From assembly GCA_005883415.1 (NCBI GenBank), contig VAWT01000158.1:1-33117 (forward strand): a stretch of 33,117 bases of DNA, read 5' to 3'. Source of the stretch: Actinomycetota bacterium. GTDB taxonomy: Bacteria; Actinomycetota; Thermoleophilia; Solirubrobacterales; Solirubrobacteraceae. The position numbers were made by a program, and so were the translations under genes. Within the stretch, counting starts at the first letter, position 1. The number at the start of each line of letters is the position of its first letter. Under the pieces are notes generated by a model. That model had not been told where the DNA came from, made no database searches, and saw nothing but the letters and a program-made list of their open reading frames with translations. Below are positions 5,360 through 32,437 of the stretch, piece after piece.

Positions 5360-5584
5360 TCAGGTCCCGAATCCGACCCGATGCTCTTCGTGGTCGACGA
5401 TCACGTACACGACCTTGGTCAAGTCGACAGCCACGGTCCCCGCCTCGGCGGTCAGGTCGTGCCATCCGTCGGAGCCGAGGGCGTTGCGAAGCTTCGTCAA
5501 CTCGGCGGGCTCCACACGCGCCGCGAGCGTCTGGCCCCCTAGGAACCCGATGCTGATCTTGTGTGGCTTCTCGTTGGCCGCCAT
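5360..5584 (-). CDS. Small DUF3107-like protein
   Basis: 74 residues. The pattern KISIGFLGGQTLAARVEPAELTKLRNAL, then a loop, then VAVDLTKVVYVIVDHEEHRVGFGT resembles actinobacterial DUF3107: an N-terminal beta strand, a helix, and a C-terminal strand of the type 'vpadkIaYVei'. Function unknown. The ATG overlaps the stop of the epimerase gene (bases 5582-5586), so the two are translationally coupled. No membrane or signal segment. The family call is by pattern only; the coding status is supported by the overlap and by GC-rich third codon positions. Confidence 0.72.
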   Translation of the reverse strand: MAANEKPHKISIGFLGGQTLAARVEPAELTKLRNALGSDGWHDLTAEAGTVAVDLTKVVYVIVDHEEHRVGFGT

Positions 5585-5994
5585 CAGTGACCGTTCGCCG
5601 GTTGCACGAGCTCTGTGAGCACGCCGCCGGTCGAGGTGGGGTGCAGGAATGCCACCCGCGAGCCGCGGATCCCTATCCGTGGCTGCTCATCGATCAGCCG
5701 CAGCCCGGCGCTGGCCAGCCTCTCGAGCGTCTGCTGCACGTCTCCGACGCGGTAGGCCACATGGTGAAGCCCCGTCCCCCGGCGCGAGATGAATTTCCCC
5801 ACGGCGGTCTCTGGTCCCAGCGGCTGGAGCAGTTCTACGTGCCCGGCTCCGACATCGAGCAGTGCCGCATCGACGCCCTGTTCGGTGACCTTCTCCCGGT
5901 GGATCAGCGGCATCCCGAACGTGTCACGGTACAGGGCCAGCGCGGCCTCGATGTCCTCGACGGCCACCCCAACGTGGTCGATTACCTCAAGCAT
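5584..5994 (-). CDS. mce: Methylmalonyl-CoA epimerase
   Basis: 136 residues from the ATG at 5992-5994. I chose it over an upstream in-frame ATG at 6099 because homology begins exactly at MLEVIDHVGVAVEDIE and the upstream extension is low-complexity. VOC/glyoxalase fold: metal ligands H7 (IDHVGVAV), E54 (HVELLQPLG), H78 (GTGLHHVAYRV) and E128 (GGVLTELVQP); the phrase HPTSTGGVLTELVQP is diagnostic of this subfamily. It interconverts (2R)- and (2S)-methylmalonyl-CoA between propionyl-CoA carboxylase and methylmalonyl-CoA mutase, feeding succinyl-CoA to the TCA cycle. First gene of the mce-DUF3107-PAP2-ychF operon, with a TATCCT box 9 bases upstream. Confidence 0.93.
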   Translation of the reverse strand: MLEVIDHVGVAVEDIEAALALYRDTFGMPLIHREKVTEQGVDAALLDVGAGHVELLQPLGPETAVGKFISRRGTGLHHVAYRVGDVQQTLERLASAGLRLIDEQPRIGIRGSRVAFLHPTSTGGVLTELVQPANGH

Positions 5995-6003
5995 GGGCGG
6001 CTG

Positions 6004-6016: not shown

Positions 6017-6956
6017 TCATTCCACCCGCTCCATCCTGGGGTTGGGCGAGTAGGTCCGTCCCACCTTGGCGCATGGGCGGCCCTCGAGCAGCACGACATC
6101 GGCGGTGAAGTCGTTCTGGCCCCGGATCAGCGAGGACCCGACCCCGTACGCATCGACCGGTACGGCGAGGGCCTCAAATTCATTGATGCGCGTTGCGTTG
6201 AAGCCTCCGCTGGCCACAATTCTCACATCCTGAAAGCCAGCCTGATCGAGGGCGCGTCGCACCTTCTCGACCAGCTGGGGGTTGACGCCGACGGGGGTGA
6301 AGCTGCCCATCTCATCGATCAGTGAGCGGTCGACGAGCTGCTCGGAGGTGTCCAGCCGCACCCCCCACAGCTTCGGACCGAGGGCCTCCGCCACCGCCAG
6401 CGCGGTCTTGATCGAGTCGTTCTCGAAGTCCACCAAGACGGTGATGTTCATCTCCCCGTGGAAGCGGTCGGCGAACAGGGCCGCCGCTTTGACCGTGTCG
6501 CCGCCGTAGGCCGCGATCAGTCCGTGGGGCACCGTGCCGATCCCTCGGCCGCCCCACCATGACGCCTGGGCGTCGGTTGAGACGCCGATCGCGCCGGCCA
6601 CGTGGGCGCTCCAGCCGTCGCCGGTCTGCACCAACCAGTGGTCGTGACGGGCGGGGAAGTAGAAGATCTGCTTGCCACGGGCTGCCTCCACCACCTCCGC
6701 CACGTTGCGCATGATCAGCGAGCGGCGGGCCATGCAGCCTAGGTAGACCGTCTCGAGATGGGCGAACAAGCTGTAGTCGCCCTCGATCGTCATCACGGTG
6801 AAAAACCTGCATCGTGACGGTGGGGTGATGGCCCTCCGCCTCGAGCAGGCTCTTGGTGTGGACGAAGTACGCGTCCGAGTAGTAGCCCTCGCGGATGCGC
6901 TCGACCGGAAGACGGAAGATCGCCGGATCCAGTCGGGTAGCAACCTGGGTAGACAT
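6017..6956 (-). pseudogene. pncB: Nicotinate phosphoribosyltransferase, frameshifted with an internal deletion
   Basis: Two frames together encode one protein. From ATG 6956 the first frame reads MSTQVATRLDPAIFRLPVER, REGYYSDAYFVHTKSLLEAEG and HPTVTMQVFH, then loses homology. From about 6800 to the stop at 6017 the second frame reads TVMTIEGDYSLFAHLETVYLG, FPARHDHWLVQTGDGWSAHVAGA, ASWWGGRGIGTVPHGLIAAYGGD, VLVDFENDS and RIVASGGFNATRI. These are strong signatures of NAD-salvage nicotinate phosphoribosyltransferases, which make nicotinate mononucleotide from nicotinate and PRPP. As I recall the family, MQVF and WETVMTIEGDY are separated by roughly 50-60 residues that are absent here; both joined ends can be written with the 12-mer ACCGTGATGACG (minus strand, 6788-6799) in different frames. 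The product is probably inactive unless the sequence is wrong. Confidence 0.82.
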
Positions 6957-6992: not shown

Positions 6993-8315
6993 GTGGCTGA
7001 ACGCGATTTTCCACATGCGTCGGTGATCGAAGGCGTGCGCTTCACCGCCCAGGTCGCGCTGCCCAACCTGATCCAAGGGCTGTTCCGGCGACGGAAGCAA
7101 GCCTCGGCTATCGCCAGCCGAACCGGAGCCGATGGACTGGCGGTGGGCTTCCTTGCCGGCGTGAAGCGGAGCTACGGCGAGGGGCCGGTGTGGATCCGGG
7201 TGGCCAAGGACGAGACCCTGCTTCTGCTTGGCCGCACGCCGATCAGGCGCGCGCTCGAGGGGTCGCCGGAGCCATTCGCCGCGGATCCCGAGCCGAAAAA
7301 ATCGGCCATGTCGCACTTCCAGCCCCACGCGCTCACGATCTCTCGAGACGGCGACTGGGAGGATCGGCGCAAGTTCACAGAGGCCGTGCTGGACGCTGGC
7401 ATGTCCTCGCTTGCCGACCGGTTCGCCGCGGTCTGCGTCGAGGAGTCGGCTCGCTTGGAGGAGGAGCTTGACTGGGACACATGGAACCGCGCCGTTCGCC
7501 GCGTCACTCGGCGGATCATTCTCGGCGACGGGGCAGCCGACGACGATTCGATCTCCGAGATGCTCGGAGAGCTGATGGACAAGTCAAATCCCCCGGGCGG
7601 GGGAGACGAGGAGCTCTACGAGCGTTATGTCGCCGCGCTTCAGCGCTACGTGGACGAGGCGGAGCCAGGCAGCCTGGTGAGCCTGTTCGAACGCGCGCCA
7701 GTGACCGAGCGCACCGAGCCTGTCGGGCAGGTCACCCACTGGCTGTTCGCGCTCGGGGATACGTTGGCCATCAACGCGTTGCGCTGCCTGGCGTTGCTCG
7801 CCGCGTTCGACGAGCAGCACAAGCGCGTCTCGGAGGAGGTCGCGAACGCGGATCTCAACACCGAATCGGGCGTGGATTCGCTGAAGGTCCTCGAGGCCTG
7901 CCTTCAGGAAGCGATGCGGCTGTGGCCGACGACGGCGATGCTGTCGCGCGAGGCCGTGCGTGATGTCGACTGGGACGGGATCACGATTCCGGCCGGCAAG
8001 CAGGTCCTGATCGTCAACACCTTCAACCACCGTGATGACGACGCAGTGCCGTTCGCCGATCGCTTTGATCCCGACGCGTGGCTGTCGGGCGACGCCGCCG
8101 ATGACTGGATCTTCAACCACTTCAGTCATGGGCCGCAGGGCTGTCCCGGCACGGCGCTGGCGCTGTTCGTGGGCAAGGCGATGCTGGCATCTCTGCTGGG
8201 TCCGGGCTCCGAGGTCCGCCTGCTCTCGCCGCGGCTCGACCCGACCAAGCCACTTCCGCACACGCTCGATTTCTTCGGCCTGAAGCTCTCGCTCGGCGGC
8301 TCGTCGGCGGGCTAG
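6993..8315 (+). CDS. Cytochrome P450
   Basis: 440 residues from GTG 6993. Landmarks: helix C DWEDRRKF (121-128) for heme propionate contact, I-helix FALGDTLAI (252-260) with the oxygen-activating Thr257, K-helix ExxR at E306-R309 (EACLQEAMRLWP), meander DRFDPDAW (357-363), and heme loop FSHGPQGCPG (377-386) with the iron ligand Cys384. A soluble monooxygenase needing a separate ferredoxin and reductase, none of which lie nearby. The N-terminus has no membrane anchor. The substrate cannot be inferred; the neighbours (NAD salvage, peptidase) suggest no pathway, so it is an orphan P450. Its stop is 9 bases from the convergent M20 stop. Confidence 0.93.
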   Translation: MAERDFPHASVIEGVRFTAQVALPNLIQGLFRRRKQASAIASRTGADGLAVGFLAGVKRSYGEGPVWIRVAKDETLLLLGRTPIRRALEGSPEPFAADPEPKKSAMSHFQPHALTISRDGDWEDRRKFTEAVLDAGMSSLADRFAAVCVEESARLEEELDWDTWNRAVRRVTRRIILGDGAADDDSISEMLGELMDKSNPPGGGDEELYERYVAALQRYVDEAEPGSLVSLFERAPVTERTEPVGQVTHWLFALGDTLAINALRCLALLAAFDEQHKRVSEEVANADLNTESGVDSLKVLEACLQEAMRLWPTTAMLSREAVRDVDWDGITIPAGKQVLIVNTFNHRDDDAVPFADRFDPDAWLSGDAADDWIFNHFSHGPQGCPGTALALFVGKAMLASLLGPGSEVRLLSPRLDPTKPLPHTLDFFGLKLSLGGSSAG

Positions 8316-29221: not shown

Positions 29222-29634
29222 GGGCGCTCGTCCAGCGGGTCAGCCGCGCGTCGGTGAGAGTCCAGGGCCAGACCGTGGCCGAGATCGGTGCCGGGCTGCT
29301 GGTGTTGCTGGGGGTGGCGCGCGAGGATACGGTCGCCGATGCCCAATGGCTCGCGAAGAAGGTGAGCGCGCTGCGGATCTTCCCCGACTTCGCCGGCCGT
29401 ATGAACGAGCCCCTGGGAGACCGCGAGGTGCTGTGCGTCAGCCAGTTCACGCTCTACGGCGACCCTCGTCGTGGGAACCGTCCGAGCTACGTCGAGGCCG
29501 CGCCGCCCGAGCTGGCCGAGGCTCTATACCGGCATTTCTGCGAGTTGCTGGGCGCGCGGCGCGGTGTGTTCGGAGCGATGATGGCGGTCGAGCTCGTCAA
29601 CGACGGGCCGGTGACGCTGCTGATTGAACGTTGA
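29218..29634 (+). CDS. dtd: D-aminoacyl-tRNA deacylase Dtd
   Basis: 138 residues from the GTG overlapping the galT stop. Complete family pattern: MRALVQRVSRASVRV, IGAGLLVLLGVAREDT, LAKKVSALRIFPDFAGRMNEPLGD, the catalytic SQFTLYGDPRRGNRPSY (75-91) and the chirality-proofreading Gly-Pro near the end, NDGPVTLLIE. It removes D-amino acids (and glycine) mischarged on tRNA, keeping proteins L-only. Length slightly below the usual 145. The stop TGA overlaps the TTG of the following methyltransferase (TTGA). Confidence 0.97.
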   Translation: MRALVQRVSRASVRVQGQTVAEIGAGLLVLLGVAREDTVADAQWLAKKVSALRIFPDFAGRMNEPLGDREVLCVSQFTLYGDPRRGNRPSYVEAAPPELAEALYRHFCELLGARRGVFGAMMAVELVNDGPVTLLIER

Positions 29635-31235
29635 TCGAGCTCAGCCGCCAGTACGCGAAGCTGTGCGACGCGCGGGACTTCGAGGATCCCGAGCTGATCA
29701 AGACGATCCGCGCGCTGGTACCCGAGCGCGACCCGCATGAGCACATCGAGCGCAAGGTGTGGGAGTACGCGATGGTGATGCTGTTTCTCGCCGACACCGG
29801 GCATCTGGACGGCGGCTCGCGGGTGCTGTCGGTCGGCGCGGGCAATGAACGGGTGCTGTTCTGGTTGACCAACCACGTTGAAAAAGTGGTGGCCACCGAC
29901 ATCTACGGCGAGGGGGCGTTTGCAGCGCGCGAGGCGCAGTCGTCGATGCTCACCGACCCCGCCAGCCACGCCCCCGCCTATCAGTGGCGAGAGGAGGCGC
30001 TCGAGGTTCACCACATGGACGGTCGCCGGCTGGCCTTCCCCGACGCGAGCTTCGACGCCGTGTTCACGGTCTCCTCCATCGAGCACTTCGGCGCCCCGGG
30101 GGATGTCGCCCGGGCGGCCGCCGAGATCGGCCGCGTGCTGCGGCCCGGCGGCCACGCCCTGATCATCACGGAGTGCCTGGTCCACTACCACCTGCTGGAC
30201 CGTGCGGCCGGACTCCTCGCCCGGCTACGGGCGCGAATCCACACCGCAAAAGCGAACCTCCGCCGAGGCCAGCCCAAGGATCCTCCCGCACGCCGCGAAC
30301 TCCACCTACACCTCGGTTTGCCTGCCCCTGATGAAGCCCGAGTGATCGGGCCAAGGGGATCACGCCGCGGAACAGGTGGGGTGCTCATCCGCGGTAACGA
30401 TAAGCCTATTCCCGCTAGTCTCGCCAGCCCCAGTCCTGCGGCTCTCGCCCGACGCTCGATGATTCGGTACCGCTACCTGTTCAGCCAGCTCGTCCGCCGC
30501 GAACTGCGGCAGAAGTACCAGGGATCGGTCCTCGGGGTGGTGTGGTACCTGGTCAATCCGCTCGTGCTGATGGCGGTCTATGGCGTGATGCTCGGTCCGG
30601 TGCTGAAGGCTGTCAACTACGCCGACTACCCAATCTTCATCCTGGCCGGGCTGTCGGTGTGGCTGTTCTTTTCGCAGGGGCTGCTCGCCGCCGCCACGTC
30701 GTTCGTCGACCAGGCTGGTCTTGTGTCCAAGGTCAGATTCCCCAGGGAGATGATTCCGGCCGCCGCGGTCACCGTTCAGCTGATCCCGATGCTCGCGATG
30801 CTCGTCGTGCTGGTCCCGGTGGCGCTGGCCGTACGGGGCAGCGCCAGCGCAGCCGTGCTGCTGCTCGTGCCGCTGATCGCATGTCTGTTCGCGTTGACGC
30901 TGGGGCTGGCGATGATCGCCTCGGTGCTGCACGCCCACTTCCGTGACGTCCAGCCGGTCCTCACGGCCGCGCTTCTGCCCTGGTTCTTCATATCGGGGGT
31001 GCTGTTCAGCCTTCAGCACCTCCCCGGACTGCAGACCCACCACTGGGTGGAGCCTCTGTTGCGCTGGGCGAACCCGATCGCGCCGTTCATCGACACGGCG
31101 CGTAGCGTTCTGTACAGCGGGCACGCACCGTCGCTGGTGACGTTGGCATACGTGGTTGCTGCCGGCGCGGTGTCGCTGGTCATCGGGATGGCGGTGTTCC
31201 GAAGCCTGGAGGGCGAGCTGGCGGTGGTGCTGTGA
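29631..31235 (+). CDS. Class I SAM methyltransferase, its frame staying open into the Wzm permease (534 codons)
   Basis: From TTG 29631 one frame runs without a stop for 534 codons. Residues 1-180 are a clear methyltransferase: VLSVGAGNERVLFWL (65-79, SAM loop), ATDIYGEG (88-95), FDAVFTVSSIEHFG (141-154), RVLRPGGHALIITE (168-181). Residues about 195-276 look non-coding (mixed codon use, no homology), and M277 starts a full Wzm permease. In the +1 frame the end of this stretch reads NSTYTSVCLPLMKPE and stops at 30345, which resembles a methyltransferase C-terminus. So the methyltransferase probably lost part of its tail and shifted frame, and the 534-codon frame is a read-through rather than a true fusion. 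In such loci the enzyme may methylate the polysaccharide or its sugars. Confidence 0.62.
   Translation: MIELSRQYAKLCDARDFEDPELIKTIRALVPERDPHEHIERKVWEYAMVMLFLADTGHLDGGSRVLSVGAGNERVLFWLTNHVEKVVATDIYGEGAFAAREAQSSMLTDPASHAPAYQWREEALEVHHMDGRRLAFPDASFDAVFTVSSIEHFGAPGDVARAAAEIGRVLRPGGHALIITECLVHYHLLDRAAGLLARLRARIHTAKANLRRGQPKDPPARRELHLHLGLPAPDEARVIGPRGSRRGTGGVLIRGNDKPIPASLASPSPAALARRSMIRYRYLFSQLVRRELRQKYQGSVLGVVWYLVNPLVLMAVYGVMLGPVLKAVNYADYPIFILAGLSVWLFFSQGLLAAATSFVDQAGLVSKVRFPREMIPAAAVTVQLIPMLAMLVVLVPVALAVRGSASAAVLLLVPLIACLFALTLGLAMIASVLHAHFRDVQPVLTAALLPWFFISGVLFSLQHLPGLQTHHWVEPLLRWANPIAPFIDTARSVLYSGHAPSLVTLAYVVAAGAVSLVIGMAVFRSLEGELAVVL
30459..31235 (+). CDS. wzm: ABC-2 polysaccharide export permease (Wzm/TagG type)
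   Basis: 258 residues from ATG 30459, the usual Wzm length. It opens with YRYLFSQLVRRELRQKYQGSVLGVVWYLVNPLVLMAVYGVML, the amphipathic and first membrane helix typical of Wzm/TagG, then SKVRFPREMIPAAAV (the conserved VRFPRxxxP coupling region) and LHAHFRDVQPVLTAALLPWFFISGVLFSLQHLP. Six membrane helices. It forms the channel through which lipid-linked glycans cross the inner membrane, working with Wzt. It lies in the same open frame as the upstream methyltransferase (see that entry), but a separate start here explains the family boundary. GTGA overlap with wzt. Confidence 0.9.
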   Translation: MIRYRYLFSQLVRRELRQKYQGSVLGVVWYLVNPLVLMAVYGVMLGPVLKAVNYADYPIFILAGLSVWLFFSQGLLAAATSFVDQAGLVSKVRFPREMIPAAAVTVQLIPMLAMLVVLVPVALAVRGSASAAVLLLVPLIACLFALTLGLAMIASVLHAHFRDVQPVLTAALLPWFFISGVLFSLQHLPGLQTHHWVEPLLRWANPIAPFIDTARSVLYSGHAPSLVTLAYVVAAGAVSLVIGMAVFRSLEGELAVVL

Positions 31236-32437
31236 CCCGGGGACTGGCGGCGGGGGAGATCGTGCTGGAGGACGCGTGGCGGCTGTTCTCGGCTCGCGGG
31301 GACCGGGGTCGCACCCTGAAGGAGCTCGTCGCATCGCTAACCCGGCGACGCGTGCCCGAGCTTCCGCCGACTCAGGCGCTGGCGGGCGTCTCGCTGCGGA
31401 TCGCGCCGGGAGAGACGGTCGGGATCGTGGGCCGAAACGGCGCTGGCAAGACCTCGATGCTGCGGGTGCTGGCCGGGATCATCCCGTTGCAACGCGGCTA
31501 CGCCGCGTGCGGCGGCCAGGTGGCCACGCTGATCGAGCTCGGGGCCGGTTTCGGCCGCGAGTTCACGGGGCGGGAGAACATCCACGTGAGCGCGGCGCTG
31601 CACGGCATGAGCCGGACCGAGACTGAAGAGCGGATCGACGACATCATCGCGTTCTCGGAGCTAGGCCACTTCATCGATGCCCCGATTAAGACCTACTCCT
31701 CCGGAATGCTGGTCCGGCTTGGGTTCTCGATTGCCGCCCACCTGCGCGCCGACGTCCTGCTGGTGGACGAGGTTCTGGCCGTCGGCGACGAGGCGTTTCA
31801 GCGCAAATGCCTTCGGCACATCATCGCCCAGATTGAGCAGGGCCTTACGGTGGTGCTCGTATCGCACGCGCCCGCAACGATCGAGCGCGTGTGCCGGAGG
31901 GCAGTGGTCCTCGACGCTGGCCGCGTCGCGTTCGATGGGCCGGCCGCTGAGGCGCTGCTCTTCTACCACCGGCTGCTGGGTATCGAGAGCCTGGAGCAGG
32001 TGGCCGCGCGCCAGGCCAGCGACAAAGCCGTGGCCCTCAGTCGGGCCACGCTCGAAGACGCCGGTGGTCGGCCCCGGCAGGTATTCGAGCCGGGCGAGGC
32101 GATGCGGCTCGTTCTCGATCTGGATGCCCCGCTGAATGCGCCCGAGGTGACCGTGGCGATCGAAGTCCGCCACGTCGACGGCCGCGCCGTGTTCCGGACG
32201 CAGAGTCCGGCCACGGCCCCCGGTGGGAGCGGTCAGCTGGTGTTCGACGTGCCGCGGCTGACCCTGCTGGGAGGTGACTACGACCTCGCGATTGCGATCC
32301 ACGAGCCGTCCGATACGCCGCCCGGTATCGACCGTCTGCTGACGTTCAGCGTCGTAAGCGCGGCGGACGCGGAGGGCATCGCGGACCTGCGCGGCACATG
32401 GACGGTCACCGGCCACCATGTGGAGACGGCTCCGTGA
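31232..32437 (+). CDS. wzt: Polysaccharide export ATP-binding protein Wzt with C-terminal glycan-recognition domain
   Basis: 401 residues from the GTG overlapping the wzm stop. ABC ATPase: Walker A GRNGAGKT (67-74), LIELGAGFGREFTGRENIHVSAAL (Q-loop/Wzt-type insertion), signature YSSGML (155-160), Walker B VLLVDEVLAVGD (175-186), VLVSHAP switch His. After about residue 265 a beta-rich domain (FEPGEAMRLVLDLDA, VTVAIEVRHVDGRAVFRT, GGDYDLAIAIHEP) matches the Wzt C-terminal carbohydrate-binding fold, which in O9a-type systems recognises the modified glycan end before export. A methyltransferase just upstream could add such an end cap; this link is inferred. GTGA overlap with the next gene. Confidence 0.94.
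   Translation: MTRGLAAGEIVLEDAWRLFSARGDRGRTLKELVASLTRRRVPELPPTQALAGVSLRIAPGETVGIVGRNGAGKTSMLRVLAGIIPLQRGYAACGGQVATLIELGAGFGREFTGRENIHVSAALHGMSRTETEERIDDIIAFSELGHFIDAPIKTYSSGMLVRLGFSIAAHLRADVLLVDEVLAVGDEAFQRKCLRHIIAQIEQGLTVVLVSHAPATIERVCRRAVVLDAGRVAFDGPAAEALLFYHRLLGIESLEQVAARQASDKAVALSRATLEDAGGRPRQVFEPGEAMRLVLDLDAPLNAPEVTVAIEVRHVDGRAVFRTQSPATAPGGSGQLVFDVPRLTLLGGDYDLAIAIHEPSDTPPGIDRLLTFSVVSAADAEGIADLRGTWTVTGHHVETAP

What the first reader, a model, noticed from the sequence alone, without database searches (positions are those of the whole stretch)
6788..6799. pncB broken by a deletion apparently between two out-of-frame copies of a 12-mer
At the frame switch the minus strand reads ACCGTGATGACG. 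In one frame it encodes the end of MQVFHRDD (the form expected just after MQVF in this family); in the other it encodes TVMT of the later WETVMTIEGDY block. This is what recombination between two short direct repeats would leave, removing the intervening roughly 50-60 codons and shifting the frame. It predicts loss of nicotinate salvage by this enzyme.
Basis: partly seen in the sequence, partly recalled or inferred. Interest (0 to 1): 0.55.

Follow-up and report, generated by a model that had tools for sequence, protein, structure and literature searches.

The report
Recently deleted vitamin-B3 salvage gene
In this uncultured soil actinobacterium, the assembled gene for an enzyme that recycles vitamin B3 into NAD lacks about 150 bases and is frame-shifted; it is probably a recent, ordinary gene loss, and the deletion did not arise from a 12-base repeat as first proposed.

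Summary
The break is real in the assembly. A PRK07188-type nicotinate phosphoribosyltransferase gene (pncB, minus strand, 6956-6017) changes frame at 6799/6800 and lacks 152 or 155 nt (about 51 codons, not a multiple of 3) relative to intact relatives. The repeat mechanism is not supported: all 12 bases at 6799-6788 are the normal right flank (TVMT of ETVMTIEGDY). The supposed left copy is absent from relatives (0 of 71 match at 9 or more of 12 positions in register; the residue after MQVF is Q, G or A, never H). In 13 same-genus genomes the two flank alignments share exactly one base (A6799): a near-blunt, end-joining-like deletion; the genome has three Ku matches. The 258 downstream codons show no decay, so the break is recent, or an assembly or strain-level artefact. 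No second NAPRTase and no copy of the missing segment was found in this 75.9%-complete MAG; nadA, a nadB-like gene and nadC are present, so NAD synthesis need not depend on pncB. An odd T5 run at the junction (GTT TTT in 0 of 80 relatives) may be filler, an error, or a sign of an originally in-frame loss. Ordinary gene loss; low interest.

The parts
6801..6956 (-). 5' fragment of pncB: first 52 codons (MSTQVATRL...TMQVF), in the native frame
   Evidence: 82% identical to the L002 protein over residues 1-57; NCBIfam PRK08662/PRK07188 N-terminal match
6800..6805 (-). TTTTTC at the junction: T5 run; GTT TTT at this site in 0 of 80 relatives (GTC TTC in 50, GTG TTC in 16)
6788..6799 (-).
6017..6799 (-). 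3' fragment of pncB: TVMTIEGDY... to the stop, open and without signs of decay
   Evidence: 86% identity over 258 aa; pN/pS; NF005529 nicotinate phosphoribosyltransferase match over profile 94-355
6312..6956 (-). Predicted product of the native start: 52 native residues followed by 162 out-of-frame residues (214 aa)
5584..6000 (-). Downstream neighbour: methylmalonyl-CoA epimerase (TIGR03081), intact and syntenic in relatives
6993..8315 (+). Upstream divergent cytochrome P450; in the sampled relatives the M20-pncB interval holds an MFS-like ORF or almost nothing, and no P450 homologue was found

Best explanation
The gene is a nicotinate phosphoribosyltransferase (PRK07188-like PncB) of a Solirubrobacterales MAG, inactivated by a recent deletion of 152 (or 155) nt. 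Shown: everything between the MQVF codons and the ACC of ETVMTIEGDY is gone, which removes residues 53-103 (numbering of the intact relative L002), most of the middle of the QRPTase_N domain, and leaves the two halves in different frames. Inferred: a double-strand break was rejoined with at most 1 bp of homology, perhaps with a few T as filler, most simply by Ku-dependent or other end joining. The cell tolerates the loss because it can make nicotinate mononucleotide from aspartate through NadB, NadA and NadC.
For: The own genome holds only this pncB and no other copy of the missing segment. Relatives are intact, and in 13 same-genus genomes the DNA alignments of left and right flank end and begin at the same base, query 162 = 6799. 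The residue after MQVF is never H and the left 12-mer is absent in 71 relatives, while the right copy is 12/12 in 10 and at least 10/12 in 43. Deletion lengths 152/155 follow from relatives' spacing of 171/174 nt against 19 nt here. Pfam QRPTase_N spans residues 28-130 of the intact protein and is not found in the remaining 3' part. Three Ku matches in this genome. nadA and nadC adjacent on C383; a gene on C467 whose best NCBIfam matches are L-aspartate oxidases. Downstream fragment undecayed, so recent. Compared genes elsewhere in the window are not frame-broken, so the sequence is not generally indel-prone.
Against: Single metagenome-assembled sequence, 75.9% complete, 469 contigs; reads not available. 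The undecayed downstream half would also be expected if the gene were intact in the population and the junction an artefact or minority allele. The left flank of the direct ancestor is unknown. End joining by Ku is inferred from gene presence only; LigD was not searched.
Confidence: 0.66

Rival explanations
1. Slippage or recombination between two short out-of-frame direct repeats of ~9-12 bp.
For: The 12-mer can be read in both frames. An ancestral left flank reading Q-R-D-D with codons CGT GAT GAC would give a 9-bp repeat; R occurs at the second position after MQVF in 12 of 71 relatives and D at the fourth in 16 of 71.
Against: D never occurs at the third position in 71 relatives and no relative has 9 or more of 12 bases in register. 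The base before CGTGATGAC in the junction (C) fits only the right flank: 73 of 80 relatives have CAG or CAA there, the rest Gly or Ala codons (the Gly codon GGC would fit but is found only in distant relatives). Flank alignments overlap by 1 base in 13 genomes.
Confidence: 0.07
2. Assembly or chimeric-read artefact, or a minority allele: the population carries intact pncB and the junction is a mis-join.
For: Metagenome assembly; no decay in the downstream half; the junction carries an unusual T5 run, one of four A/T runs of 5 or more in 33 kb.
Against: There is no repeat at the junction long enough to collapse a de Bruijn graph, so junction k-mers must occur in reads (inference). Other compared genes of the window are unbroken.
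Confidence: 0.17
3. The true deletion is in frame (153 or 156 nt, MQVF joined to TVMTIEGDY) and the extra T in the T5 run is a one-base error, a later mutation, or is bypassed by +1 slippage at GTT TTT C or by transcriptional slippage, so that a protein short of 51 residues is or was made.
For: One T fewer joins MQVF and TVMT in one frame; GTT TTT is absent in 80 relatives; TTT C is a shift-prone setting (general knowledge).
Against: The loss removes a helix and three strands of the N-terminal domain (moderate-confidence model), present in every relative examined; no other short version was found. Two events are needed instead of one.
Confidence: 0.1

Closest known systems
Nicotinate phosphoribosyltransferase, NCBIfam NF005529 (PRK07188) / NF006415 (PRK08662); solved relatives 2I14 and 1YTD
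   Same: Both halves of the broken gene match it; the intact relative aligns over residues 19-352 with 2I14
   Different: The window copy lacks residues 53-103 and is frame-shifted; even the intact relative scores a little below the curated cut-off (345 vs 378 bits)
Gene inactivation by a small non-homologous (Ku/LigD-type end-joining) deletion
   Same: Near-blunt, 1-bp junction, possible filler T's, Ku genes present
   Different: Mechanism inferred from a single junction; no experimental link
Replication slippage or recombination between short direct repeats
   Same: A small internal deletion
   Different: No repeat flanks the segment in intact relatives

Membership tests
Nicotinate phosphoribosyltransferase (PRK07188-like) | Full-length match to the family profile with the N-terminal (QRPTase_N) and barrel parts in one frame | tested here: not met
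   Halves match separately, profile 16-54 and 94-355; QRPTase_N not found in the 3' part. It is a broken member, not a working one.
Nicotinate phosphoribosyltransferase (PRK07188-like) | Orthology: conserved place beside M20 peptidase and methylmalonyl-CoA epimerase | tested here: met
   Same order in most same-genus genomes compared
Nicotinate phosphoribosyltransferase (PRK07188-like) | Enzymatic activity on nicotinate and PRPP | not testable with these tools
   Needs a complementation or enzyme assay
Direct-repeat-mediated deletion | Two copies of the repeat flanking the segment in the intact form, one left at the junction | tested here: not met
   Left copy absent in 71 relatives; right copy present
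Non-homologous end-joining deletion | 0 to a few bp of homology at the junction | tested here: met
   1 bp shared by the flanks
Non-homologous end-joining deletion | Ku and LigD in the genome | tested here: inconclusive
   Three Ku matches; LigD not searched
Pseudogene | Relaxed selection on the remaining sequence | tested here: not met
   Median pN/pS 0.296 against a median of 0.369 among relatives; one private change at an otherwise invariant site. Compatible with a break only if recent.

The most novel reading that the evidence does not exclude
An in-frame-shortened PncB (MQVF joined to TVMTIEGDY) is made through +1 or transcriptional slippage on the T5 run and has kept some function, which would explain the undecayed downstream half.
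Probability: 0.02. Interest if true: 0.45.

Novelty: new member of a known kind. Interest (0 to 1): 0.1.

Why it matters
It is one more instance of apparently recent loss of a dispensable vitamin-salvage gene in an uncultured soil actinobacterium. It also shows that a motif readable in two frames is no evidence for a repeat-mediated deletion unless both copies are found in intact relatives. It has no wider consequence unless the junction proves to be expressed.

Tried and rejected
Second NAPRTase in the genome: none with PF04095 or TIGR01513 apart from the broken gene (PF04095 does not reach this gene either, so it tests only for the other type). Missing segment elsewhere in the assembly: not found. 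Shared deletion in other genus members: none; 24 of 27 have hits to the flanking DNA, and the 3 without any match are 73-77% complete. Age of the break from decay: no decay. General indel-proneness of the sequence: no other broken frame among compared genes. Promoter pattern scan near pncB: none found, uninformative for a GC-rich actinobacterium. The AlphaFold model of the intact relative has moderate confidence only (mean pLDDT 60.6), so it was not searched against fold libraries; the single-sequence fold of the 3' fragment was not collected. Literature search gave nothing specific.

Full report
What is there. On the minus strand, pncB starts at 6956 (MSTQVATRLDPAIFRLPVERIREGYYSDAYF...) and runs in one frame to MQVF (codon 52 ends at 6801). 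The homologous frame then resumes one base out of register...TVMTIEGDYSLFAHLETVYLG..., and stays open to the stop at 6017. The start codon's own frame continues as nonsense to 6312 (214 aa). The protein belongs to the nicotinate phosphoribosyltransferase type PRK07188 (NF005529); the two halves match profile positions 16-54 and 94-355. The window lies in a MAG of 2.93 Mb in 469 contigs, 75.9% complete, of the Solirubrobacterales by its nearest named records (inference).

Comparison with intact relatives. One scan of genome contigs gave 80 loci at up to 86% identity, and 60 relatives' genomes were searched. Every locus with sequence upstream of the match has the segment (L068 is cut off by the contig end). 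The distance from the ATG of MQVF to the first codon of MTIEGDY is 171 or 174 nt in same-genus relatives and 19 nt here, so 152 or 155 nt are missing, which is 2 modulo 3. A BLASTN search of 6960-6740 in the genus gives, in 13 genomes, a left piece ending at query base 162 and a right piece starting at query base 162, i.e. at 6799, with 152 or 155 nt between them in the relative (for example G014: 152; G003: 155).

The repeat claim. The stated left copy requires MQVF followed by H-R-D-D. In 71 distinct relatives the residue after MQVF is Q in 65, G in 5 and A in 1, and the third residue after MQVF is never D. In register, the left flank matches ACCGTGATGACG at 1-8 of 12 positions (mean 4.4; shuffled 3.2, sd 1.5), while the right flank matches completely in 10 and at 10 or more positions in 43. 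So the 12 bases are simply the right flank, and only A6799 is common to both flanks. A lineage-specific left repeat cannot be excluded outright because that DNA no longer exists, but nothing supports it.

The junction. The window has GTT TTT where 0 of 80 relatives do (GTC TTC 50, GTG TTC 16), and the T5 run is one of four A/T runs of 5 or more in the window. By window codon usage GTT is 8% of Val codons and TTT 16% of Phe codons. The run may be filler from end joining, an error, or chance. With one T fewer the gene would be continuous as MQVF-TVMTIEGDY, a 153/156-nt in-frame loss; this variant is kept as a rival.

Consequence. In the intact relative L002 the lost residues are 53-103; Pfam QRPTase_N covers 28-130. 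A predicted structure of L002 (mean pLDDT 60.6) places one helix and three strands there. I infer that neither fragment is a working enzyme. Reinitiation at 6793 would give only the 258-residue C-terminal part, without the N-terminal domain.

Age and reality. The downstream 258 codons show no relaxation: median pN/pS 0.296 against 0.369 between relatives, and one private change at an otherwise invariant column. The break is therefore very recent, or is an assembly or strain-level artefact. The compared neighbouring genes are not broken, and the junction lacks a long repeat that could collapse an assembly; reads are needed to decide.

Dispensability. No second NAPRTase was found, but nadA and nadC lie adjacent on contig C383, and a gene on C467 matches L-aspartate oxidase models best, slightly below the nadB cut-off (429 vs 453 bits). 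Among relatives (mostly of the same order) at least 90% complete, 13 of 39 have no match to this pncB, so the gene is often absent; whether those have another type of NAPRTase was not tested. Three Ku matches make end joining plausible.

Verdict.

Noticed in passing
6993-8315 (+): A cytochrome P450 ORF (heme-binding motif FSHGPQGCPG) starts divergently 36 bp from the pncB start, between pncB and an M20 peptidase. Sampled relatives have an MFS-like ORF there or almost no space, and none had a P450 homologue, so this is a variable insertion point.
   Followed up: partly
29631-31235 and 31232-32437 (+): One ORF joins a methyltransferase domain (residues 66-178) to an ABC-2 (Wzm-like) permease domain (283-476), followed by an ABC ATPase with a Wzt_C domain: perhaps a polysaccharide exporter with a fused modifying methyltransferase.
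   Followed up: no
G000 contigs C348 and C203 (outside the window): Three Ku-domain matches, two of them neighbours on C203.
   Followed up: no
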